NCBI RefSeq assembly: GCF_000423245.1
Contig: NZ_KE383993.1
Location: 290,160 to 354,159, forward strand
Direction: 5' to 3'
Origin: Ligilactobacillus ceti DSM 22408
GTDB taxonomy: Bacteria > Bacillota > Bacilli > Lactobacillales > Lactobacillaceae
DNA length: 64,000 nucleotides
In this document: positions 33,181 to 60,083 of the stretch, one piece after another
Numbering within the stretch: position 1 is the first letter of the stretch
How the letters are laid out: each line of letters opens with the position of its first letter
Made by a program: the position numbers and the translations under genes
Notes under the pieces: generated by a model
Databases searched by the model: none
What the model was told of the DNA's origin: nothing
Seen by the model: only the letters and a program-made list of their open reading frames with translations

Positions 33181-33554
33181 ATGGAAGAGATAACTTTACA
33201 TGAAAATGAACGCATTGATCAACTTTTTACAAATGAAGTTCAAGTTATTCAAAGTTCTGAAGTGTTTTCGTTTTCACTAGATGCGGTTTTATTAGCGCAT
33301 TTTGCCGAACCAAAAAGAGGCTATAAGACTAAGCTGATTGATTTTTGTGCTGGAAATGGCGCGGTTGGTTTGTTTTTAAGTTCTAAAACCAATGGCCAAA
33401 TAACTAGTGTGGAAATTCAACCTAAATTAGCCGAAATGGCGCAAAGAAGTGTCCGTTTGAATAATTTAACTGAACGGATGGAAGTTTTGAATATTGATTT
33501 AAATGATAGTTTGAAATATTTACGCAAAGATAATTTTGATACAATTGTTTGTAA
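33181..33554 (+). pseudogene. trmN6-like tRNA1(Val) adenine-N6 methyltransferase, interrupted
   Basis: The first 124 residues of a YabB/TrmN6-type methyltransferase: MEEITLHENERIDQL, FSFSLDAVLLAHF, SAM-binding IDFCAGNGAVGLFL and VEIQPKLAEMAQRS. The frame then reads FDTIVC and breaks where family members have NPPYF. After the first two bases of the Asn codon (33553-33554) homology ends and the frame closes at a stop at about 33605. The missing catalytic NPPY and C-terminal half mean the product is inactive unless element 1 excises. ATG follows AAAGGAGG. The 3' half is presumably beyond the window. Confidence 0.88.
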
Positions 33555-33579
33555 AATAACAATACCACATATTATACAA
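33553..33579. other. attL of element 1 (host AA plus left arm)
   Basis: The junction is AA|AATAACAATACC. The first 25 bases of the insert (33555-33579) match the first 25 bases of element 2 at 20 positions and of element 3 at 15, with AT-N-ATACA at the same distance (insert positions 17-24) in all three. Core position is inferred, as the right ends are not visible. Confidence 0.7.
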
Positions 33580-33602
33580 AGTATTCCTTTTTTGACACTC
33601 AC

Positions 33603-33709
33603 CTAAAATCACTGATAATAAGCTAGTTGCGTAAATTAAACTAAAAATCAGCATAATAAAAAATATGAATATGGGCTTTAACGGATGTCGTTAAGGGCTT
33701 TTTTTATTT
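33603..33709 (+). terminator. Left-end non-coding region with terminator-like hairpin
   Basis: After the stop of the broken gene there is no reading frame of note. At 33673-33709 an imperfect stem (TTAACG/CGTTAA) is followed by a run of seven T. Equivalent hairpins with T-runs occur at the same relative place in elements 2 and 3, and would isolate the element from host transcription. Confidence 0.55.
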
Positions 33710-33751
33710 GTAGGGTGTGTGGGAATTTTTTAGGGGATCAAAAACTCCTGA

Positions 33752-33803
33752 AAGCCTTGATATATAAAGGCTTGACTTATTTTTCTCTTTGAGTGATGTA
33801 TGT
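33752..33803 (+). promoter_or_regulatory. Conserved hairpin and leader upstream of recombinase operon 1
   Basis: AAGCCTT (33752-33758) pairs with AAGGCTT (33767-33773) around a GATATAT-type loop. TTGACT follows, then a block of over 20 bases that is also present in front of the recombinase operon of element 2. In element 2 the stem is AAACCTT/AAGGTTT, so one pair changed on both sides. A promoter with operator, or an RNA leader, is likely. Confidence 0.6.
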
Positions 33804-33820
33804 TAGCAAGGAGGAAGATG

Positions 33821-34009
33821 ATGAAAAATGTCAAGGAATGCATAGATGCAGAGATGAATTATAGGCTTGCATCAATTTTTATCGATTATCTATATCACAA
33901 GGAAGCTATCGATAAAAAGGAGTTAAATAGAGTAAGAAAGAAGTTAAAGAAAAAATATAATCCTCCTACAAAGAGGCTGGAGGGTTTAAGTGGAAAAAGA
34001 AATAATTAA
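33821..34009 (+). CDS. Small SHOCT-like protein upstream of serine recombinase (element 1)
   Basis: A 62-residue protein (MKNVKECIDAEMNYRLASIF, then KEAIDKKELNRVRKKLKKKY) resembling the small SHOCT-domain proteins that often precede large serine recombinases in Firmicute elements. It is clearly homologous to the 61-residue protein of element 2. The ATG at 33821 is six bases after AAGGAGG; the frame extends upstream to 33800 without a site. It overlaps the recombinase by 20 bases. A role in control of the recombinase, for example direction, is inference only. Confidence 0.75.
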   Translation: MKNVKECIDAEMNYRLASIFIDYLYHKEAIDKKELNRVRKKLKKKYNPPTKRLEGLSGKRNN

Positions 34010-35858
34010 GATAAAAACGCCTACCTATAAGAAAAAGCATAAAAAACTAAAGGTGGCAGCGTATGCTAGAGTTTCAACGGATAAAGAAGAGCAGCACACA
34101 AGTCTTGTAGCACAAAAGGAATATTATAAAAGCTATATTAGATTAAATCCTCAGTGGGAATATGTAGGCTTATTTGTAGATGATGGTATAAGTGGGACTT
34201 CATATAAAAATCGTGATGGTTTTAATCAGATGATAGATAAGGCTATACGGGGAGAAATCGATCATATTGTTACGAAATCTATAAGTAGGTTCGCAAGAAA
34301 TACAGTAGATACCATCAACATAATAAGGTTATTAAAAAGTAAGAATATATCGGTGTTTTTTGAAAAAGAAAACATCAATACCCTAGATAGTAAGGGCGAG
34401 TTTTTACTGACGATTATGTCTAGCTTTGCACAAGAAGAATCAAGGAGTATATCTGAAAACTGCACCTGGGGTCAGCGTAAAAGATTTAGAGACGGAAAAG
34501 CTAGCGTAGCCTTTACTAATTTTCTTGGATATGACAAAGGAGAAAATGGCGAGTTTGTTATAAATAAAGAAGAAGCAGAGGTTGTAGAAGCAATTTATGC
34601 CATGAAGATAATAGGATATAGTCTTTCTAAAATAAAAGAAACACTAGAGAAAAATAATATCTTATCTGCTGGTAAAAAAGAATCCTGGTATCTTCAGCCT
34701 CTTATAAATATATTAATGAATGAGAAGTATATAGGCGATGCCTTACTTCAAAAATATTACACGGTAGATTTTTTAACTAAAAAGCAAAAGAGAAATGAAG
34801 GCGAGCTTCCTAAATATTATGTTGAAAATAATCATAAAGGCATTATTCCAAGAGAGGTGCAAGAGTATGTAATCTCCTGTATGGAAGAGAATAAAGAAAA
34901 ATACCCTACAAAACTTGCTTGCAAGGAATGCGGAGCTTATCTTGGAAGATTTAGGATTCATGCTGAGTTTAAGGGTGGAAGTTGGGGTTGGCGGTGTAGG
35001 AATAGATATAGCAAGATTAAAAAGTGCCATTTACGTCATATCTATGATAGAGAATATGTAAAAAGCCTTCAGAAGGCGACTATGCTTTTATTAGAAGAGA
35101 AATTTGGCTTAGTGAATGAAGTGCTAGATTTATTTGATTTTGATGAGAAAAGGTATAAGGAGCTAGTAGGGCTTATTAGGTTTAGTGATTATGGTGATTT
35201 TGTAGCTGATAGAGAAGACCTAGAGACCATACTTAAAGTTTGCAGGGTTGATAGCGAGCATATGGCTGAATTTGAATTTATTGATGCTAGCAAGATAGAA
35301 AATATAAAAATAGAAGGTACAGGCAAAAGAGCTGGAGATAAGGTTAGAGAAGAACTTAGATATGAGGCTGAATATCTAAAGTGGCTAGAACTAAGGCATA
35401 CAGAAAGAACAGCTAAAAATATAAAAAACAGGGTCAAATGCCTAAATGATATTATAAAGATAGAATATCTAGATACTTATACCCAAGAGCTAAACGAGAA
35501 TGCTTGGTTTAATGAGCACACAGATGAATATAAAAAAGCACTAGTAAGAGCGGTGAAGAGCTATTTTGAGTTTTTAGAATATGGAACTAAAACAGAAGTA
35601 CCAAAGCATTATGAAGAATTTAAAAGCTGGCTAAAAAATGATAACTACTATGCAGCGGAGACTAAGAAGGGCTTTAGAAAGAATGTAAGAAAAGCTCATA
35701 AGATATTATCGTTAGATGATTTTAGCTATGAAGAGTATATAGACCTACTTGTAGAGGATAAAGCCTATAAGCGTTTATATAAAACTAGGCAAAGTGCTGT
35801 CAAGGTGGGAGTAAAAGTTTATTTTAAGTTTTTGGACGAGAAAAGCAAAAGACCATAG
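33990..35858 (+). CDS. Large serine recombinase of element 1
   Basis: A 622-residue site-specific recombinase. The resolvase domain (about 17-165) has the nucleophile Ser in AYARVSTDKEE, then FVDDGISGTSYKNRDGFNQM and SISRFARNTVDT; the recombinase domain follows, and a zinc ribbon near 311-350 (CKECG, then GWRCRNRYSKIKKC). About 260 residues remain after the ribbon, more than in most large serine integrases, all helical, with two similar segments (AVKSYFEFLEYG and GVKVYFKFLDEK) that recall the SAM-like core-binding domain of tyrosine recombinases. GTG start after GGAGGG. It is a full-length relative of the recombinase at 57.2 kb and should integrate and excise element 1. Confidence 0.92.
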   Translation: MEKEIIKIKTPTYKKKHKKLKVAAYARVSTDKEEQHTSLVAQKEYYKSYIRLNPQWEYVGLFVDDGISGTSYKNRDGFNQMIDKAIRGEIDHIVTKSISRFARNTVDTINIIRLLKSKNISVFFEKENINTLDSKGEFLLTIMSSFAQEESRSISENCTWGQRKRFRDGKASVAFTNFLGYDKGENGEFVINKEEAEVVEAIYAMKIIGYSLSKIKETLEKNNILSAGKKESWYLQPLINILMNEKYIGDALLQKYYTVDFLTKKQKRNEGELPKYYVENNHKGIIPREVQEYVISCMEENKEKYPTKLACKECGAYLGRFRIHAEFKGGSWGWRCRNRYSKIKKCHLRHIYDREYVKSLQKATMLLLEEKFGLVNEVLDLFDFDEKRYKELVGLIRFSDYGDFVADREDLETILKVCRVDSEHMAEFEFIDASKIENIKIEGTGKRAGDKVREELRYEAEYLKWLELRHTERTAKNIKNRVKCLNDIIKIEYLDTYTQELNENAWFNEHTDEYKKALVRAVKSYFEFLEYGTKTEVPKHYEEFKSWLKNDNYYAAETKKGFRKNVRKAHKILSLDDFSYEEYIDLLVEDKAYKRLYKTRQSAVKVGVKVYFKFLDEKSKRP

Positions 35859-35885
35859 GGAGTAATCCTTATGGTCTTTATTTTG
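35847..35885. terminator. Terminator between recombinase 1 and hsdR
   Basis: The stem AAAGACCATA/TATGGTCTTT around GGGAGTAATCCT ends in TATTTT; the A-run on the other side suits the convergent hsdR. Confidence 0.8.
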
Positions 35886-35895
35886 ATTGCACTTT

Positions 35896-38886
35896 TTATT
35901 TTTCTCGTAGTTTTTTATAGATTGAGCTTGAGAAGACTCCTAGTAGTTCTTTTTTGCTTTCTTTATCTTCTAAGAGTTTTGAGCAAAAATCTCTGTTTTG
36001 TTCGATGCCATCAAGCAGGGCATCATCTATTTTGTCGTAGTATGCAAAGTTGAAATCTTGCTCGGTGTTGTTTTTTGCACTGAGTTTCAAATCTTCTGAT
36101 TTTAATAGTATATCTTGTATTTGTAGTAAGAATTTAACTACTACATCTTTGTCAAAGTCTACTCCGTGTCTTGCATTAAATTCTTCTAAAAGCACTGATA
36201 TATGTTCGATCTTATCTTCTCCGATACTTGAAAGAGCCTCAGCTATAGGAAGTTTTACAACAGGTTTTGCGATGATTTTTGGTTTTTCATAGCTTTCGTT
36301 TTTCTTTTGAATAAAGTTTTTAGCTTTTATCATGCTGGTAATATCAAAACCACCACCGCTATGTTTTACGCTAATATAACGAAGTAGGTAAGTAATAAGT
36401 AGATATTTTTTGTGAAGCTCGTTATCTAAAAACTGGGTAACCTGAATCAAAAATTCATAAAAGCGTATAAACTTGCGAAGAAGTTTTACAAACTCATCTC
36501 TTTGTTCTTCATCTAGCTCGTCTAGTTTCTTTTGAGTCCTTCTTAGGATATAGTTAAGTTTCTTTTTATCTTTCGGATCTATTCGTTCTTTACATAAGAT
36601 TTCACTTGCTCTATCTATATAATCTGGATCAAACATAAGATAGGCATCAATTTTTGCTTCTAGCTCATAGATTCCAGATGGGGTTATGGTGTTTGATAAA
36701 AGCGTGGTTGAATAATACTTTGAAAAAGCATCTTCTATATCTTTATAATCATTTACAAAATCAAGTATAAAAGTAGTTTTATTAAATGGTGGACAGATAC
36801 GGTTTAGCCTTGATAGGGTTTGCACGGCTGCTACACCTTTTAGGGTTTTTAGCACATACATGGCACATAGTTTAGGCTGGTCAAAACCTGTCTGATATTT
36901 ATTTGCAACAAGTAAGACTCTGTTTTCATCTTTATCAAACTCTTTAGCAGTTTTCTTTTCTGAAAAGCCATTGATACCAGCTTCTGTATATTCTATATCT
37001 TCATCATCTAATGTTACCTTGCCAGAAAAAGCAACCAGAGCTTTGATGTCTTTATAGCCTTTTTTATCGATATACTCATTAAACGCCTTATGGTATTTTA
37101 CAGCTTCCTCACGAGATGCCGTTACTACCATAGCTTTTGCTTTGCCACCAAGTTCATCCATAATAGAGGTCTTAAAATGCTCTACAATGATTTCTATTCT
37201 TTGAGCGATATTTGTTTCATGCAGGCGTATAAAACGAGCTATTTGAGCTTTAGCCTGTCTTGTATTCACCCTTGGATCGTCTTCTACTTTTTTATTTAGC
37301 TCATAAAAAGTCTTATAAGTTGTGTAATTTTGAAGCACATCAAGAATAAAGCCCTCTTCAATAGCTTGTTTCATTGAATAAAGATCAAAGGCTTCACGCA
37401 GCCCTTTTTGGTTTTCCTGTGCAAATAGCTGCAAGGTGGTTGGCTTTGGTGTCGCAGTAAAAGCAAAAATTGAAACATTATCCTGCTTACCATTTCTTAA
37501 TATTTCATCAGCGATTAAATCCTCAACATCACTGCTTTTTGCCTCAGTAGAAGAAAGAGTCCTACTTACTGCTGCCATATTTTTGCCAGCGGTAGATGAG
37601 TGTGCCTCATCGATAATAACAGCAAATCTTTTATCCTTTAGCCCCTTTACGCTGTGAATAATATGAGGGAACTTTTGAATAGTAGTAGCTATTATTTTAG
37701 TTTTACCAGCTAGGGCATCTGCTAGGTCGTGAGATGTTGATTTATCATCCATTACTCTGATAAAGCCTGATTTATGTTCTAAGCCCATAACCGCTTTTTG
37801 CAGCTGACGATCCACCACAACTCTATCAGTTACAACGATGACATTATCAAAAATATTCTGATTATCTTTATCATGAAGTGTTGCAAGCCTATGAGATAGC
37901 CAAGCGATAGAGTTTGTTTTACCACTACCTGCAGAATGCTGAATCAGATAGTTTCTACTGCTTTTATGCTCATAAACATCATCAAGAAGTTTTTTTACGC
38001 ATCTTCTTTGATGAAAACGAGGAAAAATTATCGTCTCCTTTGTTTTCTTCGTATCTCTTACAGGATCGATTTCTTCCTTTTTCTCTAAAAAGATAAATTT
38101 TGAGATAAGCTCCAAAAGGCTATCTTTACTTAGTACATCTTCCCACATATAAGAAGTAGAGTATTTATCAGGCAAAATAGGGTTACCCTTACCAGTATTT
38201 ACACCCTCACCACAGCCCTTATTAAAAGGTAAAAAATAGGTGCTTTTACCATCTAATTTTGTGCTCATATGAACTTCATTAAAATCAAGTGCAAAATAAA
38301 CAAGAGCTCCTACCTTAAACATAAAAAGCCTAGTTTTAGGATTGCGATCTTCACGGTATTGCAAAATAGCATCCTCATAAGACTGCCCAGAAGCATTAGA
38401 CTTAATCTCAATACAAATAATAGCTAAACCATTAAGAAAAATAACAAGGTCCACACGCTCCTTAGGCTTGCCATGCTGATCATTTGATGCAATTACTTCT
38501 TCCATAACAGAAAAAATATTCTGCTCATACTTTTTATATAGTTCTTTATTTAGAGTGCTTGCAGGCTTTGGATACATAAGACGCAAAGTAGTATTCGATA
38601 TTTCAATACCATTTTTAAGCACATCAATAAGAGAACTACCCTTACTGGTAATCTTAGTGTTAATCGTATTTATAATCGTATCTTCGGTCTTTTCCTTAAA
38701 GATTTTAGAAAGTTTCTCCATCTCTTTGCTTTGCGTAGCATAAAGAAACTTAAGCAAAAGCTCTCTATCTAAAGCAAAGTGCATATCATAATCTTTATTT
38801 GTTCTTCTAATATAGCCCTGATTATCTTCTAAATAATCTAAAATCTCTTGCTGAAAATCATAGCGTTCACTAATAAGCGTTCTCAT
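35896..38886 (-). CDS. hsdR: Type I restriction enzyme HsdR (translocase/endonuclease)
   Basis: A 996-residue motor and nuclease subunit that cleaves unmodified DNA. The N-terminal PD-(D/E)XK domain has VDLVIFLNGLAIICIEIKSNA (near residue 152; the D and E-x-K are present). The helicase part shows Walker A HSAGSGKTNSIAW (near 318), DEAH VIIDEAHSS (near 425), motif III FTATPKPTT (near 475) and LSRLNRICPP (near 695). The ATG lies after AAAGGAGGTTAATC, itself inside the hsdS end, overlapping it by 17 bases. It is the last gene of the defence operon. Confidence 0.95.
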   Translation of the reverse strand: MRTLISERYDFQQEILDYLEDNQGYIRRTNKDYDMHFALDRELLLKFLYATQSKEMEKLSKIFKEKTEDTIINTINTKITSKGSSLIDVLKNGIEISNTTLRLMYPKPASTLNKELYKKYEQNIFSVMEEVIASNDQHGKPKERVDLVIFLNGLAIICIEIKSNASGQSYEDAILQYREDRNPKTRLFMFKVGALVYFALDFNEVHMSTKLDGKSTYFLPFNKGCGEGVNTGKGNPILPDKYSTSYMWEDVLSKDSLLELISKFIFLEKKEEIDPVRDTKKTKETIIFPRFHQRRCVKKLLDDVYEHKSSRNYLIQHSAGSGKTNSIAWLSHRLATLHDKDNQNIFDNVIVVTDRVVVDRQLQKAVMGLEHKSGFIRVMDDKSTSHDLADALAGKTKIIATTIQKFPHIIHSVKGLKDKRFAVIIDEAHSSTAGKNMAAVSRTLSSTEAKSSDVEDLIADEILRNGKQDNVSIFAFTATPKPTTLQLFAQENQKGLREAFDLYSMKQAIEEGFILDVLQNYTTYKTFYELNKKVEDDPRVNTRQAKAQIARFIRLHETNIAQRIEIIVEHFKTSIMDELGGKAKAMVVTASREEAVKYHKAFNEYIDKKGYKDIKALVAFSGKVTLDDEDIEYTEAGINGFSEKKTAKEFDKDENRVLLVANKYQTGFDQPKLCAMYVLKTLKGVAAVQTLSRLNRICPPFNKTTFILDFVNDYKDIEDAFSKYYSTTLLSNTITPSGIYELEAKIDAYLMFDPDYIDRASEILCKERIDPKDKKKLNYILRRTQKKLDELDEEQRDEFVKLLRKFIRFYEFLIQVTQFLDNELHKKYLLITYLLRYISVKHSGGGFDITSMIKAKNFIQKKNESYEKPKIIAKPVVKLPIAEALSSIGEDKIEHISVLLEEFNARHGVDFDKDVVVKFLLQIQDILLKSEDLKLSAKNNTEQDFNFAYYDKIDDALLDGIEQNRDFCSKLLEDKESKKELLGVFSSSIYKKLREK

Positions 38887-40168
38887 GATTAACCTCCTTT
38901 TTACCTGTTACATACTCAAATATCACAGACTTCTTATAACTATCAAGTGTGCCAAGTTGGTTTTGCTTATCCTCTATAATCTTGTCAATCTCTAAGCATT
39001 TACTATCGAGATAGTTTGTAATTGCCTCTTGCTCAGCTAGGGGTGGGAGTATGATTGAGAGGTTTGATAGGTCTGTTGTGGATAGTTCAATAAATGTTGT
39101 GCCTCTTCCTAGCAAAGTTAGTTCTTCTACAGCAATCAACATAAAGTAGTAATAGTATTTGTTGAATTGATCTTGCACTAATGCTTTACATCCTTGATTT
39201 ATGCATAACTCGGCTGTTGTATAGTTGATTTTTCCTATAGGTGCTCTGTTGGATACGATTATGCTGTTTGCTGGTATTTTTTGTGTTCCGCAAGATAATA
39301 ATCCTTGTTGTGTGATTGTTCTACTACCTCCGTTTATATAACCGAATGTTTGCATATCTGCGGGTGTTATCCATTTAATATCGCCGTTCCAATAGTTGGG
39401 ATTATCAGATTTAGGAGTAGAACCATTAACAACATTAAAACGGTATTTTACCTTAACAACCTCCCAGTGTTCTGGTATTTCGCCTATCCAGGGGATAGTG
39501 CTGTTTTTCATAGGGGTGTTTTTTTGTAAGCCTTTGGTTACTGTTTCTGTGATGAGGGACTTTTTATAGTTTTTAAGCACCTCAATTTGTTTTGCTATGG
39601 CATCTTTTATGCTATCAATCTCAGAGCATTTACTATCGAGATAGTTTGCTATTAGCTCTTGCTCAGCTAGGGGTGGGAGAGGGAGTTGTAATTCGTTAAT
39701 ATCTTTCATAGATATGTTTTTTTGAGTATTGCTAGTACAACGCAAATCAATTTCAATTTGACCGCACTCGGATAGCAAAGTATAAAAGATAAATTTATTA
39801 TGGTTCTTATTATTTATTCTTATCAAGGCTAGTGGAGACCATATTTGTATCCTTGTATCTTTTTTTATGATTGCAATTTTGCCTGTGGATGCTGCTTTTC
39901 CTAATAAAATATCTCCCTTTTGAGGTTTACTTTTTTTGTCATATCTATTTGCATCTTCAAATGAAATATATCTACAAGGCTCATAAATGAGTTCATTATT
40001 AGATATGCTATCAACGGAATAAAATGGTATACCTTCATCTAAAAATACTGGTGTTTCGTGTGGACCATCTGATATAGGAGTTTCAACTAGATGTTTTAAT
40101 CTTACAACCTCCCAATGCTCAGGTATTTCACCTATCCAGGGGATAGTGCTGTTTTTCATTTTTATCAT
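38870..40168 (-). CDS. hsdS: Type I restriction specificity subunit HsdS
   Basis: A 432-residue DNA-recognition subunit with two target-recognition domains and two helical spacers. Each half begins with nearly the same segment, NSTIPWIGEIPEHWEVV (near residues 6 and 222), and each spacer has LPPLAEQE and NYLDSKC. The two halves give a bipartite target. The repeats are also near-identical at DNA level and in frame with each other. Its ATG overlaps the hsdM stop (ATGA). Confidence 0.94.
   Translation of the reverse strand: MIKMKNSTIPWIGEIPEHWEVVRLKHLVETPISDGPHETPVFLDEGIPFYSVDSISNNELIYEPCRYISFEDANRYDKKSKPQKGDILLGKAASTGKIAIIKKDTRIQIWSPLALIRINNKNHNKFIFYTLLSECGQIEIDLRCTSNTQKNISMKDINELQLPLPPLAEQELIANYLDSKCSEIDSIKDAIAKQIEVLKNYKKSLITETVTKGLQKNTPMKNSTIPWIGEIPEHWEVVKVKYRFNVVNGSTPKSDNPNYWNGDIKWITPADMQTFGYINGGSRTITQQGLLSCGTQKIPANSIIVSNRAPIGKINYTTAELCINQGCKALVQDQFNKYYYYFMLIAVEELTLLGRGTTFIELSTTDLSNLSIILPPLAEQEAITNYLDSKCLEIDKIIEDKQNQLGTLDSYKKSVIFEYVTGKKEVNHENAY
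39458..39511. repeat. HsdS direct repeat, copy A
   Basis: A 54-base block encoding the start of the second recognition half. It matches copy B at 40106-40159 at all but a handful of positions; the copies are 648 bases apart, a multiple of three. A second pair, at 38995-39049 and 39625-39679 (630 bases apart), encodes the spacer segment. Confidence 0.85.
40106..40159. repeat. HsdS direct repeat, copy B
   Basis: Partner of the block at 39458-39511, encoding the start of the first recognition half. Recombination between the copies would keep the frame and remove or add a recognition domain. Confidence 0.85.
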
Positions 40169-42270: not shown

Positions 42271-42283
42271 TCATTTACCTCCT

Positions 42284-45450: not shown

Positions 45451-45472
45451 TATTAACACCCCCTTTCTATTT

Positions 45473-46044: not shown

Positions 46045-46062
46045 AGAAGAAAGGCGATAAAT

Positions 46063-46716: not shown

Positions 46717-46721
46717 AAGAA

Positions 46722-51117: not shown

Positions 51118-51219
51118 AGGACAAAAGCACTGAAGCCCTTATAAATCAAGGTTTACAGGCGTTGGAGTTTTTGAAAATAAATGTGGACACCTCGGACAAA
51201 AGTGTGAAAGGAGGAATAT

Positions 51220-52599: not shown

Positions 52600-52643
52600 A
52601 GGTTCTATAAGAGAACTTACCTCAAAGAGAAAAGAGGTAAGAA

Positions 52644-53087
52644 ATGAAAGCAAAAGACTATTTTAAGAAAATAGAAAAACTAGAAAAAGGCATCGACCTT
52701 AAAAAACAAAGAGTAGAAATCTTTAGGCAAATAGCAGGAAGTCCCGCGTCTCCTAGATATTCACACATGCCAAAGCCACCACAACGAAGAAGCATGTCGC
52801 CTATGGCTGATGCTCTTGATAAAGCCCTAGACCTAGAAGAAGAAATCAAAACAGATGAAATAAAACTAAATGCAATGAAGGTGGAAGCGTTAGATATTAT
52901 TGGTGAAATGCCTAGTACTGTGCATCAGCAGATTTTGATTGGTAGATACTTTGAGCATTTAAGCTGGGATAAGCTGATAGCAAAAGTCTTATATGAAAGA
53001 CGCTATGTTTATAAAATGCACGGCAGAGCTTTGTGTTCTTTTGAAAAAATAGTACATGATAGAAAAAAGACACTAAAAGACACCTAA
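52644..53087 (+). CDS. DUF1492/ArpU-like late regulator
   Basis: A 147-residue protein. The central Pro-rich SPRYSHMPKPPQRRSMSPMA and the C-terminal sigma-region-4-like part (QQILIGRYFEHLSWDKLIAK, then RRYVYKMHGRAL) match the DUF1492 group of sigma-like phage regulators, which usually sit just before the packaging genes and control late transcription. Ribosome site GAGGTAAGAA precedes ATG. Confidence 0.82.
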   Translation: MKAKDYFKKIEKLEKGIDLKKQRVEIFRQIAGSPASPRYSHMPKPPQRRSMSPMADALDKALDLEEEIKTDEIKLNAMKVEALDIIGEMPSTVHQQILIGRYFEHLSWDKLIAKVLYERRYVYKMHGRALCSFEKIVHDRKKTLKDT

Positions 53088-53145
53088 AGACACTATAAAA
53101 CACAAGTTCACCTGTGTTATTATATAATCAGCAAAAAGTATAAGA

Positions 53146-53176
53146 GCCCTTGCAGGACAAACCTGTGAGGGTTTTT
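53146..53176 (+). terminator. Terminator or attenuator before the HNH gene
   Basis: Arms CCCTTGCAGG (53147-53156) and CCTGTGAGGG (53162-53171) with an ACAAA loop, followed by TTTTTC. A TATAAT lies at about 53121-53126, so the hairpin may sit in the HNH leader and act as an attenuator or a late-control point. Confidence 0.65.
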
Positions 53177-53202
53177 CTTATGCCCAATAAAGAGGAGGTC
53201 TT

Positions 53203-53565
53203 ATGCCAAGGAAACCGAAAAGACCATGCTCTTTTCCAAACTGTCCAAAACTTACTGATGGTAGGTTTTGTGAGAGGCATGAAAAAGAAGATAACAAGAG
53301 GTATGAAAAGTATGGTCGTAAGTATAAGAGTTCTCAAAGGTATGGAAGAGTATGGAAACGAATAAGAGATAGTTATGTTAGGACTCATCCTTTTTGTGAG
53401 ATGTGTTTTAAGGCTGGAGTTATGAAAGAAGTGGAACAAGTCCACCATAAGCTACCGCTTAATGAAGGTGGAACGCATGATATAAATAATCTTATTTCTT
53501 TATGTCAAAGCTGTCACTCACGAATTCACGCCGAGCGTGGTGATAGATGGAATAACAAAAAATAG
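53203..53565 (+). CDS. HNH endonuclease
   Basis: A 120-residue phage HNH nuclease. N-terminal zinc pattern CSFPNCPKLTDGRFCERH, then CEMCFKAG, the core VEQVHHKLPLNEGGTHDINN (His-His) and NLISLCQSCHSRIHAE. HNH proteins beside terminase genes assist DNA packaging in cos phages, and a terminase small subunit lies 760 bases downstream. ATG follows AAGAGGAGG. It is convergent with yafQ. Confidence 0.93.
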   Translation: MPRKPKRPCSFPNCPKLTDGRFCERHEKEDNKRYEKYGRKYKSSQRYGRVWKRIRDSYVRTHPFCEMCFKAGVMKEVEQVHHKLPLNEGGTHDINNLISLCQSCHSRIHAERGDRWNNKK

Positions 53566-53580
53566 CCACCTTGTTAGTGG

Positions 53581-53859
53581 CTATTTCTTAAATAAATCTG
53601 AATGCGTGCCAGTATCTGCAAGGGTTAATGTTAAAATGTCATCTTCTATCAAATAGATGAGTAACCAGTCTGGTTGCAGGTGACATTCATGATAACCGAT
53701 GAAGTTACCTTTTAAAGCGTGAGGTTTATATTTTGCATCGAGTTCTTTACCCTGACGTAAAGTATCGATAACGCTTTCTAGTATAGACATATCTAAACCA
53801 CGCTTTTTAGCACGCTTATAGCTTTTCTTAAAAGCGTTGGTGTACTTAACTATATACAT
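53581..53859 (-). CDS. YafQ-family toxin (mRNA interferase)
   Basis: A 92-residue RelE-superfamily toxin of the YafQ type: MYIVKYTNAFKKSYKRAKKR, LDAKYKPHALKGNFIGYHEC, HLQPDWLLIYLIEDD, and the C-terminal TLADTGTHSDLFKK with catalytic His. YafQ enzymes cleave mRNA on the ribosome. It is two bases downstream of its antitoxin gene, the usual dinJ-yafQ order. The pair sits as a module inside the phage region, opposite to its neighbours. Confidence 0.94.
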   Translation of the reverse strand: MYIVKYTNAFKKSYKRAKKRGLDMSILESVIDTLRQGKELDAKYKPHALKGNFIGYHECHLQPDWLLIYLIEDDILTLTLADTGTHSDLFKK

Positions 53860-53861
53860 TG

Positions 53862-54137
53862 TTAAGCGTCCAAAGCTGACATTAGGTCATGCATATTTGT
53901 ATAGCCTTTGACATCAGGATCGTGAGCGATACGCTTAGCTTCAACCATAGCTTCTAGTGTTTCTTGATTGTATTCTGGCATGCTTACAGTAAATGGTAGA
54001 CCATTTCTTAGCACGCATTGACTAAGAAACATGTTAACGGCAGTGGACATATCAAGACCAAGCCTTGCAAAAAGTTCTGATGATAATTTTTTAGTATCTG
54101 AATCGATACGAATTTGAGTTGGAATTGTTTTAGCCAT
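53862..54137 (-). CDS. RelB/DinJ-family antitoxin
   Basis: A 91-residue ribbon-helix-helix antitoxin: TIPTQIRIDSDTKKLSSELF, ARLGLDMSTAVNMFLSQC and a C-terminal toxin-binding tail. It neutralises YafQ and represses its own promoter. I chose ATG 54137, nine bases after AAGGAGG; an in-frame ATG two codons earlier is too close to that site. Confidence 0.94.
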   Translation of the reverse strand: MAKTIPTQIRIDSDTKKLSSELFARLGLDMSTAVNMFLSQCVLRNGLPFTVSMPEYNQETLEAMVEAKRIAHDPDVKGYTNMHDLMSALDA

Positions 54138-54159
54138 AATCATTGCCTCCTTCGAGATG

Positions 54160-54188
54160 ATTATAATACAAATAGTTTACAATGTCAA
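54160..54188 (-). promoter_or_regulatory. Promoter of the toxin-antitoxin pair
   Basis: On the minus strand, a perfect TTGACA (54183-54188) and a perfect TATAAT (54160-54165) are 17 bp apart, just upstream of the antitoxin ribosome site. Confidence 0.9.
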
Positions 54189-54325
54189 TCAAAATACAAG
54201 ATAGATAACGGGTAGGGGCGGTCATTATCTGTAAAACCTAGCCTGCAGAACAACGGGCGTCCAGTCTTACGCAGAAAAAATGTTTTTCAAAGGGGGTATA
54301 GCCCCTATTTTTTATGAAAGGGGTG

Positions 54326-54889
54326 ATGATTATTAGTAAAGATGGAACTATGAGAGGTGGAAGACGAGTAAAAACAGGTAGAAAATCAAAGCCTCTAACA
54401 GAAAAAATCGCACAAGGCGAAAAAGCAAAAGTATTAGAAATTGAAGATTTGTTTGTCGGCGATATACCAGAAGGTGCTGACATAGATTACGGCGATGTAA
54501 TTCCAGAACCAAGCAGCTATTTATCAGCTACACAAAAAGATGGGACAAGTCTTGGTGCTGATCAAATTTATAAAGAGATATACAAGTGGTTAAAAGAGCG
54601 TGGATGTGAAAAGTTAGTCAGTCCAAGGACAGTTGAAAGTTATGCCCAGTCGTTTGCTCGTTATGTGCAATGCGAAAGTGCAATCAGTCAGTTTGGTCTA
54701 CTCGGTAAACATCCAACAACAGGCTCTCCTATGGCGTCTCCTTTTATATCGATGAGTCAGTCCTTTCAAAAGCAAGCGCAGGCAGTGTGGTATGAGATAG
54801 GACAAATTGTAAAAGAGAATTGCTCGGTTGAATACAGTGGAGATCCTAATGCTGATGCAATGGAAAGGTTACTTCGTATGAAGAGATAG
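54326..54889 (+). CDS. Phage terminase small subunit, P27 family
   Basis: A 187-residue DNA-packaging subunit that recognises phage DNA. P27 marks: the N-terminal RRVKTGRKSKPLTEKIAQG, the central LVSPRTVESYAQSFARYVQC and LGKHPTTGSPMASPFISMS, and the C-terminal GDPNADAMERLLRMKR. The start is uncertain: ATG 54326 is just after GAAAGGGGTG, and 54314 is also in frame. This is the first structural-module gene; the large subunit is not in the window. Confidence 0.88.
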   Translation: MIISKDGTMRGGRRVKTGRKSKPLTEKIAQGEKAKVLEIEDLFVGDIPEGADIDYGDVIPEPSSYLSATQKDGTSLGADQIYKEIYKWLKERGCEKLVSPRTVESYAQSFARYVQCESAISQFGLLGKHPTTGSPMASPFISMSQSFQKQAQAVWYEIGQIVKENCSVEYSGDPNADAMERLLRMKR

Positions 54890-54902
54890 AAAGGAAAATT
54901 TT

Positions 54903-55685
54903 ATGATAGAAAAAGTAAATCCAAAACATCCAGATAAAATCTCGGATAGAATAGCGGGTGCAATTCTTGACCTAGCTTACAAGTTAGAAAAAGAGCCAAA
55001 GGTAGCAGTTGAAGTGCTACTGGGTCATGGCAAATGCCATACCATTATTGAAACCACGGTCGGTTTTAAGGTAAAAGCGATTGAGGAGATTATTAAACGC
55101 ATCGCTGGTGATGTTGTTTGTGATGTGGTGGTTGTAAAACAAGATGAGCATTTAACAAGAAACCAAACAGGCAAAATCAGATGTGGTGATAACGGAATAT
55201 TTAAGGGCATGCCTTTAACAGGTGAATCTAAAAAGCTATCAAAGATAGCTAGGGGTATTTATAGTAGGTATCCATTTGATGGTAAGTACATTCTTGATGG
55301 AGAAAAGCTAATCATCTGCCAATCCAATGCTAAAACAAGTGAGCTAGAAACTCTGTATCCAAGTGCGGTGGTTAATCCTCTTGGTGATTGGACTGGTGGA
55401 TCTGATGTTGATTCGGGAGCTACGAACAGAAAACTAGGAAGCGATATGGCAGATAGTGTTACTGGTGGTGGCTTGCATGGTAAGGATTTATCAAAGGCAG
55501 ATGTATCAGTAAATATTTATGCGTTTTTGAAAGCACAAGAAACTGGTAAGGAAGTAAAACTGTCATGTGCTATTGGTGATACCGAGATTGATGGAAAACC
55601 TTATGAAGAGATAGTGAAACTTGCGAGAGATTACATTGATGCTGTTGGTGGTTTTGAGGAGTTTGCTAAGTGGGGTCTTTTTTAA
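54903..55685 (+). CDS. Compact phage S-adenosylmethionine synthetase
   Basis: A 260-residue MetK-like protein; cellular enzymes are about 390. Visible motifs: HPDKISDRIAGAILD near the N-terminus (methionine/ATP site), QDEHLTRNQTGKIRCGDNG, PLTGESKKLSKIARG, and SVTGGGLHGKDLSKADVSVN (the P-loop-like GGGA-F-S-GKD of MetK). It should make SAM from ATP and methionine. It directly precedes the SAM-dependent methyltransferase gene, so local SAM supply for phage DNA methylation is a reasonable reading. Confidence 0.85.
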   Translation: MIEKVNPKHPDKISDRIAGAILDLAYKLEKEPKVAVEVLLGHGKCHTIIETTVGFKVKAIEEIIKRIAGDVVCDVVVVKQDEHLTRNQTGKIRCGDNGIFKGMPLTGESKKLSKIARGIYSRYPFDGKYILDGEKLIICQSNAKTSELETLYPSAVVNPLGDWTGGSDVDSGATNRKLGSDMADSVTGGGLHGKDLSKADVSVNIYAFLKAQETGKEVKLSCAIGDTEIDGKPYEEIVKLARDYIDAVGGFEEFAKWGLF

Positions 55686-55698
55686 CAAGGAGGAATAG

Positions 55699-56750
55699 AT
55701 GAATAAAGAAACTAAATATTTTATAGCTGATATTGATGAGCTTATTCCTTATGTTAATAATGCAAGAACTCACTCTGAGGCACAGGTTAATCAAATCGCA
55801 TCAAGTATTAAAGAGTTTGGATTTTTAAATCCTGTTCTTATTACGGGAGATAATACTATCTTGGCTGGGCATGGGAGAATCTTAGCTGCAAGAAAGCTAG
55901 GGCTTAAGAAGATACCTTGTATTAAAGAAGAACATTTAAGTGAGTCACAAAAGAAAGCCTACATTATTGCAGATAACAAACTAGCTCTTAATGCTGGCTG
56001 GGACATGGAGCTTTTAAGTATTGAGTTAAGTGAGCTTGAAGGTATGGATTTTGATATTGACCTTATCGGTTTTACTGGTGAGGAGCTTTCTAAAATCTTT
56101 GATGAAGGAAAAGAAGCAACCGAGGATAAGTTTGATGTTGAAAAAGAACTAGAAAAACCTAAAACTTCTAAGCTAGGTGATGTTTGGCATATCGGAAAGC
56201 ATACAGTGATTTGTGGTGATTCAACAGATGGAGAGGTTTATTCAAAGCTACTGGAAGATAAAAAGGTAAATCTAGTATGCACCGACCCGCCATATATGAT
56301 CGACCTTGATAGTGCATCGGGGAAAATCAAAAACGATAACCTGAAAGATAAGGAAGCCTATGAGTTTTTACTGGGGGCTTTTACTAATTTTAAGGACTAT
56401 ATGTCAAAGGATGCATCAATCTATGTTTTCTATGCAACGATGAAAGCTCGTATTTTCTATGATGCTTATGAAGATGCAGGTTTTAAGGTTGGAGCTGGTC
56501 TTATATGGAAAAAGCCTCGTGCTCCTCTTATGAGAACTGATTGGAAATTTAACATGGAGCCAATCATCTGGGGGTGGAGAAAAGATGGCAAGCATATCTG
56601 GTATGGAGACCAAAAACAAAAAGCCGTGTTTGAGTTTGATGGACTTTCTAATTCCAAGACAGAGGGATTTGGTCATCCATCAAGTAAACCAGTGCCACTT
56701 ATTGCTTATTTGATTAAACAATGCACACAAACAAATGGTTTAGTGCTTGA
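55699..56750 (+). pseudogene. Phage ParB-like / DNA methyltransferase, interrupted by element 2
   Basis: 350 residues survive. The N-terminus is a ParB-like nuclease domain (IDELIPYVNNARTHSEAQVN, LITGDNTILAGHGRILAA, KEEHLSESQKKAYIIADNKL). From about 160 it is an N6-adenine/N4-cytosine methyltransferase with the catalytic CTDPPYMIDL (near 193) and SSKPVPLIAYLI (near 333). It reads GLVL and breaks after GA of the Asp codon where family members continue with D-x-FGGSG, the SAM-binding motif. An unrelated 25-codon tail runs to a stop at 56829. Without motif I it should be inactive. Confidence 0.9.
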
Positions 56751-56775
56751 AAGAATAATACCTAATATAATACAA
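56749..56775. other. attL of element 2
   Basis: The junction is GA|AAGAATAATACC. The first 25 insert bases (56751-56775) match element 1's left end at 20 of 25 positions, including ACAA at the end. The position of the crossover core is inferred from the codon break. Confidence 0.72.
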
Positions 56776-56829
56776 TTAAATTTTTTCACGCACCCTTTGA
56801 AATCCCCTTATAATAAGGCGTTTGTTTAA

Positions 56830-57050: not shown

Positions 57051-57236
57051 ATGAAAACAGTAAAAGAAATAATAGATGGACAACTGAATTATGGACTATC
57101 AAGCATCTTAGTAGATTATATTTTGGATAAAAAACTTATCGCTAATATGAAAGCTAAAAGTATAAAAGACAAGCTAAATAAAAAATATGCTCCTGCTAGT
57201 CGAATGTTGGAGGGGCTAGATGAAAGAAATAATTAA
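57051..57236 (+). CDS. Small SHOCT-like protein upstream of serine recombinase (element 2)
   Basis: A 61-residue protein (MKTVKEIIDGQLNYGLSSIL, then KLNKKYAPASRMLEGLDERN) aligned end to end with the 62-residue protein of element 1, sharing MK-VKE-ID, NY-L-SI-DY, KL-KKY-P, and LEGL. Ribosome site AAAGGAG precedes ATG. It overlaps the recombinase gene by 17 bases, indicating translational coupling. Function unknown. Confidence 0.75.
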   Translation: MKTVKEIIDGQLNYGLSSILVDYILDKKLIANMKAKSIKDKLNKKYAPASRMLEGLDERNN

Positions 57237-59160
57237 GATTGAAAATACTACTTTTAAAATCAAAAAAATTAACAAGTTAAGAGTAGCTGCTTATGCTAGA
57301 GTATCAACGGAAAAAGACGAACAGAAAATAAGCATTGAGGCACAAAAAGAATATTTTAAATACTTCATATTAAATAATCCAAAGTGGGAATTTGCAGGTC
57401 TATTTGTAGATGAAGGGTTAAGTGGAACATCCTATCATAAGCGTGAAGGCTTTAATCAAATGATAGATAAAGCAAGAAACGGTGAAATAGATCGTATAGT
57501 AACAAAGTCGATTAGTAGATTTGCTAGAAACACAGTAGATACAATTAGCATCATAAGAGAACTTAAAGCTAAAGGTATATCTGTGTTTTTTCAAAAAGAA
57601 AATATTGATACCTTAGATGCTAAAAGTGAGTTCGTTCTTACTTTAATGTCTAGTTTTGCACAGGAGGAATCTAGGTCAATCTCTGAGAATATAACATGGG
57701 GTCATCGTAAAAGATTTAGGGATGGAAAGGTTACTGTTCCTTTTAGTAGTTTCTTAGGATATAGCAGAGGAGAAAAAGGAGAACTTGTTGTTAATGAACA
57801 AGAGGCAAACATTGTAAGAGCTATCTACTACTTAAGGGTTATAGGATGCACTATAAATCAAATAGTCAAAGAATTAGAAACAAATAATGTTCTAACACCT
57901 CAAAAGAAAGAAAAGTGGAATCATAGTGTGGTGCTAAGCATTATTAGAAATGAAAAATATAAAGGTGATGCTCTACTACAAAAAAAGTTCACAGTAGATT
58001 TTCTAACTAGAAAACAGAAAGTAAACGAGGGAGAACTACCACAATATTATGTAGAAAATAGCCACCCACCGATAGTTTTAAGAGATACCCATGAATACGC
58101 AAATAAATTATTAGAAACAGATGCGAAAAGTGAAAATAAAAAAACTATAACATCTGCACTATCATCAAAAATAGTATGCAAAGAGTGTGGGGACTATTAT
58201 GGTCGCTTTAAGATTCATCCTGAATGGCATGGTGGAAGATGGGCTTGGAGATGCAGAAATAAATATAGTAGAACCAGCAAATGCAAAGTAAGACATATCT
58301 ATGATGATGAATTAATAAAAAGCATCAGCAAAGCGATAATGGAATATATAAAAACTAGAGATGACTTAATTAAAGAAGTAGAAGATATATCAAAAGTTAG
58401 TATAAACAGTTATTTAACTGAAAATAAGTCCTTCATGAACTATGTACTTATTGATAGAACCATATCACCAATTATTAAAAGCATATATGTGAATAAAAAT
58501 CATGTAGCAGATATAGAACTTATAGATGGAACTGTTATAAAAGATATTGTTATTGAGGGAACATGTATAAAAGTAGGTAGACGACTAGATAAAAAGTATC
58601 TAAAACGCATTAAATATCAAGACTCATTTAAAAAATGGTTAGAGTTAAGATACCTAAAAAATCAAGTAAGAAACATATTACAAAAAGTAAACCAAGTAAA
58701 TAGAATACTAGAAATTAAAGATGCAAAAACTTATATAAATGAATTAGAAAAACAAGATGATTTTTCTAAATATCAAAGTGAAGTAAAGAAAGACTATATA
58801 TATGCTATTAGACTTTATTTTGAATTTTTATATGAATGCATACAAGATGAAATAGAGGACTTAGGACTTACTGGTTTTGAATGGCAAAGGATCAACTGGC
58901 AACAAACAACCAAAGAAGTAGATACATCAATTGATGAGTTTAAGGAGTGGTTAAATGAGTCAACCGAGTACAGTCCTACAACGCAGAAAAATATAATAAA
59001 AAAAGTTAGAAAAGCTCATAGAATATTATCTATCGCAAACAAAACAAATTATATTTATCAATTAGAAAAAACTAAAGAATATCAGTGTTTAAGCAACAAG
59101 ATACAATCAGTTATTAAATATTCGTATAAAGTATATTTGAGGTTTATTACAGAAAAATAA
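57220..59160 (+). CDS. Large serine recombinase of element 2
   Basis: A 646-residue recombinase homologous along its length to the one at 34 kb. The nucleophile Ser is in AAYARVSTEKDEQ (near residue 28); FVDEGLSGTSYHKREGFNQM and SISRFARNTVDT follow. The zinc ribbon (near 323-365) has CKECGDYYGRF and RCRNKYSRTSKCKVRH. The long helical C-terminal part again has YAIRLYFEFLYEC and YSYKVYLRFITEK segments. N-terminal identity to recombinase 1 is higher than C-terminal, as expected if the C-terminal part sets target choice. ATG follows GGAGGGGCTAG. Confidence 0.92.
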   Translation: MKEIIKIENTTFKIKKINKLRVAAYARVSTEKDEQKISIEAQKEYFKYFILNNPKWEFAGLFVDEGLSGTSYHKREGFNQMIDKARNGEIDRIVTKSISRFARNTVDTISIIRELKAKGISVFFQKENIDTLDAKSEFVLTLMSSFAQEESRSISENITWGHRKRFRDGKVTVPFSSFLGYSRGEKGELVVNEQEANIVRAIYYLRVIGCTINQIVKELETNNVLTPQKKEKWNHSVVLSIIRNEKYKGDALLQKKFTVDFLTRKQKVNEGELPQYYVENSHPPIVLRDTHEYANKLLETDAKSENKKTITSALSSKIVCKECGDYYGRFKIHPEWHGGRWAWRCRNKYSRTSKCKVRHIYDDELIKSISKAIMEYIKTRDDLIKEVEDISKVSINSYLTENKSFMNYVLIDRTISPIIKSIYVNKNHVADIELIDGTVIKDIVIEGTCIKVGRRLDKKYLKRIKYQDSFKKWLELRYLKNQVRNILQKVNQVNRILEIKDAKTYINELEKQDDFSKYQSEVKKDYIYAIRLYFEFLYECIQDEIEDLGLTGFEWQRINWQQTTKEVDTSIDEFKEWLNESTEYSPTTQKNIIKKVRKAHRILSIANKTNYIYQLEKTKEYQCLSNKIQSVIKYSYKVYLRFITEK

Positions 59161-59169
59161 AATAACAAA

Positions 59170-59183
59170 AAAGTAATTACTTT
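59170..59183. promoter_or_regulatory. Palindromic operator and promoter of the first Phd-like gene
   Basis: A 14-bp palindrome AAAGTAATTACTTT lies upstream of a perfect TATAAT (about 59211-59216). The whole block is repeated upstream of the second Phd-like gene. Autorepression by the Phd-like protein is the likely use. Confidence 0.65.
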
Positions 59184-59240
59184 ATAGATGATAAATTTTC
59201 TAAAAAATGGTATAATGTTGCTAATGGGAGGACTGTAATT

Positions 59241-59459
59241 ATGAGTAAAAATAATGCAAGTAAAGTAATGAAGAAAACAATGAAGTTTTACAACATGTCC
59301 GATTTTCTAAGAGGTAAATCATCACAGATTATTACGAAGACATCAGATGATGACGATACTGCATTTGTTATGAAACATGGCAAGCCAGTTGCAGTGTTAA
59401 TCTCTCATAAGAAATACGAGAGATTGATGCAAGAAGGCATTGACATAGAAGAAATTTAA
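59241..59459 (+). CDS. Phd/YefM-like protein, copy 1
   Basis: A 72-residue Phd/YefM-type antitoxin fold protein: NMSDFLRGKSSQIITKTS, then DDTAFVMKHGKPVAVLISHK and KYERLMQEGID. No toxin gene follows; 21 bases downstream is hsdM. The same pairing occurs again at 60350, so this seems to be a regulator dedicated to a type I restriction-modification operon and not half of a classical toxin pair. Ribosome site GGGAGGA before ATG. Confidence 0.82.
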   Translation: MSKNNASKVMKKTMKFYNMSDFLRGKSSQIITKTSDDDDTAFVMKHGKPVAVLISHKKYERLMQEGIDIEEI

Positions 59460-59480
59460 AAAGAAAAGGAAAACAAAGTA

Positions 59481-60058
59481 ATGGCAGTAAAAAAATCAAA
59501 GCTATACTCACTACTATGGGAAGCAAGTAATAAATTAAGAGGTGGTGTAGAGCCATCAAGATATAAAGACTATGTGCTTATATTGTTATTTTTTAAATAT
59601 GTATCAGATAAATATAAAGGTCAAAAATATGCAGAATTTAAGGTAACTCAAGGAGCATCATTTGATGACCTTATAGCATTAAAAGGAACAAAAAACATCG
59701 GAGAGGATGTAGACAAAATAATCCAAAGTTTCCTAGAAGCAAATGGGTTACAGGGATCACTACCAGATGTTAGTTTTAATAATCCAGAAGAATTAGGAAC
59801 AGGGAAAGAATTAGTAGATAAGGTTTCTGGACTAGTTAGAGTATTTGAAAATCCAATGCTTGACTTTAAAAACAACAGAGCAAGTGGAGACGATATTATT
59901 GGTGATGCATATGAATACTTTATGATGAAGTTTGCACAAGAATCAGGTAAGAGCAAAGGACAATTTTATACACCAAGTGAAGTATCAAGAGTATTAGCTA
60001 GTTTGGTAGGAATTAATAAAATTAAATATAGCAAAAATAAGTCTTGGACGCTCCACGA
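59481..60058 (+). pseudogene. hsdM of a second type I system, interrupted by element 3
   Basis: The first 192 residues of an HsdM: SLLWEASNKLRGGVEPSRYK, DYVLILLFFKYVSDKY, the end of the N-terminal domain, and GQFYTPSEVSRVLASLVGIN. It reads NKSWTLH and breaks after GA of the codon where homologues have the Asp of DPACGSGS, the SAM motif. An unrelated short tail (MTI) ends at the stop 60069-60071. This class of HsdM differs from the intact HsdM2 downstream. The 3' part and its hsdS/hsdR would lie beyond the right end of element 3. Confidence 0.9.
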
Positions 60059-60083
60059 AATGACTATATAGTAAATGATACAC
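60057..60083. other. attL of element 3
   Basis: The junction is GA|AATGACTATATAG. The first 25 insert bases (60059-60083) match the left end of element 1 at 15 of 25 positions, including AT-N-ATACA at the same place. No recombinase follows on this side. Confidence 0.62.

What the first reader, a model, noticed from the sequence alone, without database searches (positions are those of the whole stretch)
33553..60083. Three nested insertions, each breaking a methyltransferase gene at the same codon position of a catalytic or SAM-binding motif
trmN6 stops at the Asn codon of the expected NPPY, the phage ParB-methyltransferase at the Asp codon of D-x-FGGSG, and hsdM at the Asp codon of DPACGSG. 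In each case exactly two bases (AA, GA, GA) remain before foreign sequence. The likely original DNA at all sites begins RA|Y, followed by CC in at least two. This suggests that one recombinase family recognises conserved methyltransferase codons, which would secure sites in nearly every genome and inside other mobile elements. Serine integrases entering hsdM or RNA methyltransferase genes are known from streptococcal elements; three stacked events within 27 kb at the same codon phase are unusual.
Basis: partly seen in the sequence, partly recalled or inferred. Interest (0 to 1): 0.92.

Follow-up and report, generated by a model that had tools for sequence, protein, structure and literature searches.

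The report
Prophages landing in methyltransferase motif codons
A small group of related phage recombinases inserts viral DNA at the same aspartate or asparagine codon inside very different methyltransferase genes, which would give these phages landing sites in most bacteria and, in several cases, breaks a restriction system.

Summary
Observation confirmed. Three left junctions (33553, 56749, 60057) cut trmN6, a phage ParB-methyltransferase and hsdM right after the first two bases (AA, GA, GA) of the Asn/Asp codon of NPPY, DGFLGS and DP(A/T)CGSG. Intact relatives carry that codon at the break: 25 of 25 same-genus trmN6, the sister phage's ParB-methyltransferase, 4 of 4 hsdM relatives examined. 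The trmN6 3' half lies 72.9 kb downstream with the same AA core. The other two 3' halves were not found in the genome; comparison with a colinear relative suggests one internal deletion removed them.

Outside the window, three more left ends with relatives of the same recombinase break MTases at the same kind of codon: two N6-MTase/hsdM-type genes at DPxCG, and a mod-like gene at DPPY (a complete prophage with GA at both ends). The five recombinases form one clade (support 0.97-0.98) and share a dyad attP, GTATC-N18-RA-N18-(G)ATAC.

Serine integrases entering hsdM and 'diverse methyltransferase' genes are known from streptococcal ICEs. The codon-level rule, the prophage clade and the RA core appear new in what I could search. 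New variant of a known kind.

The parts
33133..33606 (+). trmN6-like methyltransferase, 5' part fused at 33555 to foreign sequence; core AA 33553-33554 (attL 1). Its 3' half is L004:3474-3863, core AA at window-coordinate 106483-106484
33555..33577 (+). left attP arm of element 1 (phage A): 18 bases then TATAC
33818..34009 (+). small ORF before the left recombinase; homologous DNA precedes SR646
33990..35858 (+). SR622, large serine recombinase (Resolvase + Recombinase domains, long C-terminal extension)
35896..45459 (-). cargo of element 1: type I restriction-modification (hsdR 35896-38886, specificity-like 38870-40168 by eye, hsdM 40165-42270), DUF2326 protein 42487-44133 and ABC-3C/LmuA-like protein 44332-45459
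45961..56748 (+). phage A, left part (anti-repressor, terminase small subunit, up to the broken ParB-methyltransferase), colinear with the viral record G423
55699..56829 (+). phage A ParB-methyltransferase, 5' part; core GA 56749-56750 (attL 2)
56751..56773 (+). left attP arm of element 2: 18 bases then AATAC
57220..59160 (+). SR646, large serine recombinase of element 2
59241..59459 (+). Phd/YefM-type antitoxin-like gene preceding hsdM
59481..60071 (+). hsdM of element 2, 5' part; core GA 60057-60058 (attL 3)
60059..60081 (+). left attP arm of element 3: 18 bases then GATAC; no recombinase gene follows
60549..63777 (+). element 3 cargo inside the window: second hsdM (60549-62450) and specificity-like subunit (62443-63777, by eye); an hsdR-like ORF follows at L002:1551-4475 (by eye), then phage B

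Best explanation
These are attL sites of related temperate phages. A clade of large serine recombinases, each encoded just inside the left end, inserts the phage circle at DNA that encodes a hydrophobic strand followed by Asp or Asn of a methyltransferase motif: motif I (DPxCGxG, DxFxGS) or motif IV ([D/N]PPY). The 2-bp crossover core is the first two bases of that codon (AA for Asn, GA for Asp). attP is a dyad, GTATC-N18-RA-N18-(G)ATAC. In this chromosome phage A entered trmN6. A second element entered phage A's ParB-methyltransferase. A third, carrying phage B, entered the second element's hsdM. A later deletion from phage B's tail gene to phage A's endolysin gene removed the inner right ends with the hsdM and ParB-methyltransferase 3' halves. 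Shown: junctions, codon identity, homologous arms, clade, trmN6 and mod right ends. Inferred: that the left recombinase catalyses the reaction, the order of events, and the deletion.
For: Codon identity at all three window breaks. trmN6 3' half with the AA core 72.9 kb away. L067 and L068: 5' parts of N6_Mtase/hsdM-type genes cut after GA, 367 and 406 bp before their recombinases; relatives have the DPxCG Asp there, 2 of 2 examined for each. G1212: complete 54.6 kb prophage, left half ending MIYI, right half IDPPYNTGKDF, GA at both ends. Clade of the 5 recombinases with readable targets: support 0.965 in 112, 0.981 in 137 and 0.981 in 142 sequences, no other member. ATAC 19 bases after the core in 6 of 6 readable left arms (background 0.0038 per position) and GTATC at the mirrored place in 2 of 2 known right arms. 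G423 is colinear with phage A across the proposed deletion.
Against: A recombinase pair (SR424/SR524 here; SR454/SR523 in G1212) sits at the right end of the same elements and could be the active integrase. Only two elements have both ends; G423's contig ends beyond its pair without an hsdM 3' half. The third left end has lost or never had its recombinase. G357's left recombinase, nearest outside the clade, has an unreadable target. Two 3' halves are missing, and an assembly error between the two related phages cannot be excluded without reads. n is small: five recombinases, six junctions.
Confidence: 0.84

Rival explanations
1. The right-hand recombinase pair (SR424 + SR524) is the real integrase and the left recombinase is an accessory or directionality factor, so the methyltransferase specificity belongs to the pair or the trio.
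For: The pair ends 109 bp from the attR core in this genome. Recombinase pairs end other phages of the collections. Streptococcal triplets are described as catalysing integration together (PMC4701971).
Against: Of 168 recombinase clusters (overlapping, repeated) checked within 900 bp downstream, only this genome's own trmN6 end showed an MTase motif. Other pairs lie before HAD-hydrolase-like or other genes. The MTase targets follow the left-recombinase clade, and the conserved attL arms lie beside that gene.
Confidence: 0.2
2. The three left ends are not nested insertions but a mosaic made by homologous recombination or misassembly between related prophages.
For: Phages A and B share segments at 71-77% identity, and the region holds displaced modules and 60-75 bp repeats. 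Two 3' halves are missing.
Against: Each junction is exact to the base at the same codon position with a homologous arm. trmN6 is bracketed on both sides. Elements in other genomes and records show the same junction type. One deletion suffices.
Confidence: 0.1
3. The recombinase has low specificity (RA core only) and the methyltransferase pattern reflects selection on survivors or small numbers.
For: The six left half-sites share little beyond RA and a T-rich strand-encoding stretch (my reading). Tn1806-like ICEs are described as integrating with low specificity.
Against: Six of six readable junctions at one codon phase of MTase motifs; low specificity would scatter across codons and genes.
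Confidence: 0.08

Closest known systems
Tn1806-like streptococcal ICEs (PMC13006639, 2026; passages read)
   Same: Tandem serine integrases, insertion in hsdM, snf2 and 'diverse methyltransferase encoding genes', truncating them; nesting inside other mobile elements
   Different: GGG/GGGG direct repeats and conjugative elements; here a 2-bp RA core at the Asp/Asn codon, prophages with structural genes, one recombinase left and two right. No codon rule in the passages read
Streptococcal ICEs with a triplet of serine integrases (PMC4701971, 2016; passages and section 23 read)
   Same: Three serine recombinases, hsdM among the targets, 2-8 bp direct repeats
   Different: Described as triplets, clustered by position from the element's end; targets include mutT and traG; the position within hsdM is not given in the parts read
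Large serine recombinases surveyed in PMC10083194 (passages read)
   Same: Resolvase/Recombinase enzymes with a dinucleotide core, disrupting conserved genes
   Different: [quoted passage not shown] this clade hits several MTase families, four of six readable targets being restriction- or defence-type by annotation or my reading
Phages with a serine-recombinase pair (Javan255; records labelled Ca. Heliusvirales; phi1207.3 listed)
   Same: Recombinases matching SR646/SR548 over about the first 380-400 residues; adjacent recombinase genes in the four regions fetched
   Different: 0 of 446 matching records covered 80% of SR646; 62 of 446 covered 80% of the shorter SR548, the best such row listed at 42% identity. 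The four recombinases placed in a tree fall outside the clade; the other records were not placed

Membership tests
Large serine recombinases (serine integrases) | Resolvase catalytic domain plus Recombinase domain | tested here: met
   PF00239 and PF07508 in SR622, SR646, SR424, SR524
Large serine recombinases (serine integrases) | Short identical core (2 bp) shared by attL and attR, element between two halves of one gene | tested here: met
   AA for trmN6, GA for G1212 mod; not testable for the inner two elements, whose right ends are missing
Large serine recombinases (serine integrases) | attP near the gene, with dyad-symmetric arms | tested here: met
   GTATC-N18-RA-N18-(G)ATAC in the two elements with both ends; left arm in six of six readable
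Large serine recombinases (serine integrases) | Catalyses recombination | not testable with these tools
   needs a bench assay
Triplet serine-integrase ICEs (PMC4701971) | Three recombinase genes together on one side of the integrated element | tested here: not met
   one left and two right of the element; together only around attP of the inferred circle
Triplet serine-integrase ICEs (PMC4701971) | Conjugation module | tested here: inconclusive
   ORF lists show phage structural genes and none that I recognised as conjugative inside the elements (nine proteins checked with PHROGs); no dedicated search
Tn1806-like ICEs | GGG/GGGG direct repeat in the target | tested here: not met
   cores are AA or GA
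Tn1806-like ICEs | Integrase sequence relatedness | not tested
   no Tn1806 integrase was in hand
Temperate tailed prophages | terminase, portal, major head, tape measure, lysis genes | tested here: met
   PHROGs hits in nine phage A/B proteins; fuller sets by eye in the ORF lists of G357, G423 and G1212

The most novel reading that the evidence does not exclude
A clade of phage integrases has evolved to read, at the DNA level, the coding sequence of a protein motif shared by otherwise unrelated methyltransferases. The core dinucleotide chooses Asn (AA) or Asp (GA) targets. Phages that carry restriction and other defence cargo use it to land in, and so disarm, the restriction systems and methyltransferases of the host and of rival phages, producing nested prophages.
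Probability: 0.5. Interest if true: 0.82.

Novelty: new variant of a known kind. Interest (0 to 1): 0.68.

Why it matters
It links an integrase clade to a functional class of target through a single codon: the specificity is a DNA sequence that protein function keeps conserved across type I and mod-like restriction methyltransferases, a phage methyltransferase and a tRNA-type methyltransferase. That would secure attB sites in nearly every genome and inside competing elements. Breaking hsdM is a tidy way to disarm a type I system, because restriction also needs HsdM (general knowledge, not tested here). It gives simple predictions: core dinucleotide against Asn/Asp target, left recombinase against pair. 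It also contrasts with the LSR survey, which found no enrichment for defence genes.

Tried and rejected
Looking for the missing hsdM and ParB-methyltransferase 3' halves in the own genome: not found by family search. A protein search of the own genome was given wrong coordinates and failed; the trmN6 3' half came from the ORF list.

Collection scans that gave little: genome contigs returned 2 loci; one recombinase of L018 was placed in a tree and lies outside the clade, L019 was not placed. The viral scan with the Zn-ribbon segment returned only the three records already known; with the G1212 recombinase none. The viral scan with SR622 kept 80 of 278 loci; none of the 80 shows a broken MTase, which flagged only an MTase-like ORF 457 bp downstream in L173.

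Considered and set aside: that every serine-recombinase phage targets MTases. Against it: 168 clusters; 198 clusters; 18 loci; 14 loci. The limits: one search compared ORFs with 15 reference MTases and would have missed the G1212 5' half; one search looked only 900 bp downstream and would have missed G1212's right end, 2.7 kb past the pair; one search found two motif strings downstream (L275, L277) in frames that do not look like MTases; L184 and L173 have MTase-like ORFs nearby that do not look broken. Many loci overlap or repeat, so the counts are not independent.

Considered and set aside: that the C-terminal extension of SR622/SR646/SR548 sets the specificity. SR466 and SR458 lack it yet have the same kind of target.

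G357's left end: recombinase and arm present, target unreadable behind an IS-like fragment. I placed its core by the ATAC box, so it is not counted in the 6 of 6. Support for including it in the clade was 0.957, 0.428, 0.67 and 0.715 in four trees.

Only part of the loci returned by the genome searches went into the trees, and matches listed without a locus did not. An IQ-TREE run timed out with no output and was replaced by FastTree. One search stopped on an error after its L067 part; the rest was redone.

Full report
WHAT WAS CHECKED. The window is C1:290160-354159 of an unnamed 1.386 Mb genome in 17 contigs; contig C1 is 783,613 bases. I therefore read on to C1:433159 (L002-L005).

THE THREE BREAKS. 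trmN6 is cut after AA at 33553-33554. In the 25 other genomes of the genus that were searched the frame is open through the site in 25 of 25, and at the break all 25 have the Asn codon of NPPYF, AAT in 24 and AAC in 1. The phage ParB-methyltransferase is cut after GA at 56749-56750; the related copy in phage B reads GAT, Asp of LVLDGFLGSATT, at that place. hsdM is cut after GA at 60057-60058; four of four relatives examined, out of ten listed, align GAC, Asp of YDPTCGSG, there.

WHERE THE OTHER HALVES ARE. The 3' half of trmN6 begins at L004:3474, with the shared AA at window-coordinate 106483-106484, so the island is about 72.9 kb. In the own genome, PF02384 gives six matches and none is the missing 3' part of the broken hsdM; PF01555 gives two, the intact phage B copy and the broken one. 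Two of the three expected 3' halves are therefore not found.

WHY THEY ARE ABSENT. The IMG/VR record G423 (58.5 kb, source of L067) is a colinear relative of phage A: left recombinase, cargo, anti-repressor-like gene to ParB-methyltransferase, terminase, head, tail, lysis, DUF2800/DUF2815/polymerase genes (several names by eye), then a recombinase pair. Mapped onto it, the island has phage A's left part at 46.0-56.75 kb and its right part (endolysin end, polymerase, SR424, SR524) at about 98.2-106.4 kb. Between lie the left ends of elements 2 and 3 and phage B, which stops inside a tail gene at about 97.7 kb and runs into the endolysin gene. A single deletion from phage B's tail gene to phage A's endolysin gene would remove the right ends of elements 3 and 2 with both missing 3' halves. 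This is inference; reads were not available.

THE LEFT ENDS ARE HOMOLOGOUS. The three left arms align from the core onward. Elements 1 and 2 then have a small ORF and large serine recombinases SR622 and SR646 (52-53% identical). In element 3 the arm leads directly into a Phd/YefM-like gene and hsdM, with the stretch before hsdM homologous to that after SR646, so its recombinase is lost or never existed.

INDEPENDENT CASES. An IMG/VR scan gave two further relatives with readable left ends. L067 (SR548) follows a gene with N6_Mtase similarity cut at GETIY; L068 (SR466) follows an HsdM_N/N6_Mtase gene cut at GVLL. Both keep GA, and in both the next residue in relatives is the Asp of DPxCG, two of two examined for each. 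The stop of the broken ORF lies 367 and 406 bp before the recombinase, against 384 and 391 bp in the window. A genome search in the family of G357 gave G1212. There the left recombinase SR458 follows a gene half ending in MIYI, and the other half, IDPPYNTGKDF, with an N6_N4_Mtase match, lies 2.7 kb past the right-hand pair. GA is kept at both ends of a complete 54.6 kb prophage. The name 'type III mod' is my reading; the 5' fragment has no Pfam or NCBIfam match. In all, six of six readable left ends break an MTase after the first two bases of a motif Asp/Asn codon. A seventh, G357, has recombinase and arm but no readable target.

attP. After the core, 18 bases and then NATAC follow in all six readable left arms (and in G357, whose core I placed by that box). 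In the two elements with both ends, GTATC stands 18 bases before the core on the right side. ATAC has a frequency of 0.0038 per position in the island and GTATC 0.0010. The element thus has a dyad attP, GTATC-N18-RA-N18-(G)ATAC.

WHICH RECOMBINASE. The five left recombinases with readable targets are monophyletic in trees of 112 (support 0.965), 137 (0.981) and 142 sequences (0.981), with no other member; the first four were so in 106 sequences (support 1.0). Ordinary pairs at right ends do not share the target as far as tested. Of 168 clusters examined within 900 bp downstream, only the own trmN6 end has an MTase motif. Of 198 clusters (overlapping and repeated) compared with 15 MTase references, only SR622, SR646, L067 and L068 follow a broken MTase. 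Eighteen and fourteen further loci gave no convincing MTase. These negatives are limited in reach, as said under Tried and rejected. The genome searches covered 398, 395, 391, 335, 76 and 358 genomes (some overlap) with different E-value cut-offs from 1e-80 to 1e-145, and 13, 40, 31, 47, 1 and 15 genomes passed. Among the loci placed in the trees, only the own genome, the records of L067 and L068, G1212 and, more loosely, G357 contribute. In this sample the clade is rare.

CARGO. The elements carry defence genes between the left recombinase and the phage: type I systems (own elements), DUF2326 with ABC-3C proteins (own element 1 and G1212), a HamB-type helicase and a type III-like enzyme in L067, a cytosine methyltransferase in L068, and a PDC-S06 protein near the right end of G1212.

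MECHANISM, SHOWN AND INFERRED. Shown: exact junctions, cores, arms, clade, two complete element boundaries. Inferred: the left recombinase recognises DNA coding for a strand ending in Asp/Asn of an MTase motif, the core dinucleotide decides Asp or Asn, and the right-hand pair is secondary or cooperates. The target half-sites share little beyond RA and a T-rich stretch, so how the enzyme recognises them is open.

LITERATURE. PMC4701971 (passages and section 23): streptococcal ICEs with serine-integrase triplets disrupt hsdM, mutT and traG with 2-8 bp repeats. [quoted passage not shown] PMC13006639, 2026 (passages): Tn1806-like ICEs enter snf2, hsdM and diverse methyltransferase genes at GGG/GGGG and nest in other ICEs; this is the nearest precedent. 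[quoted passage not shown] PMC5053989 (passages): ICEs with three serine recombinases in Streptococcus suis. Other papers were seen only in search listings. I found no statement of a codon-level methyltransferase rule in searches; the library lacks most subscription journals.

VERDICT. It extends a known theme (serine integrases in methyltransferase genes) to a distinct prophage recombinase clade with a precise codon rule. New variant of a known kind; interest 0.68.

Noticed in passing
L264, L265, L266, L271 (downstream of the recombinase pair); G357 in L096: Some right-end recombinase pairs sit just before a HAD-type hydrolase gene beginning MIKLIA(T/I)D(L/M)DGT (naming by eye), so other integrase lineages of this group may also use conserved catalytic-motif codons.
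   Followed up: no
46601-46672; window-coordinates 70299-70372, 74570-74644, 98544-98615, 102849-102909: Imperfect 60-75 bp direct repeats flank the early-gene module (DUF2800/DUF2815/polymerase, naming partly by eye), which lies in different places in phages A and B, as if exchanged as a cassette.
   Followed up: partly
40165-42270 and 60549-62450: The element-borne hsdM genes have variant motif I (ADYACGT, YDGACGT) instead of DPxCG, while G357's has DPACGT; whether this protects against self-insertion is unknown.
   Followed up: no
59241-59459, 60350-60568, L050:3549-3767: A Phd/YefM-like antitoxin gene stands directly before hsdM in elements 2 and 3 and in G357, without an obvious toxin partner (first copy by Pfam; the others by likeness).
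   Followed up: partly
57220-59160, 33990-35858, L067:6327-7973: Three clade recombinases carry a C-terminal extension with a helical-looking repeat; in the first two it gives no Pfam match; two other members lack it.
   Followed up: partly
54903-55685; L002:18679-19461: Both phages carry a gene resembling S-adenosylmethionine synthetase (recognised from recall) beside the ParB-methyltransferase and, in phage B, a cytosine-methyltransferase-like gene.
   Followed up: no
L090 (Enterococcus lactis plasmid): A lone 524-aa recombinase of the wider group lies shortly before a McrC-family restriction pair, next to an IS1216 copy.
   Followed up: no
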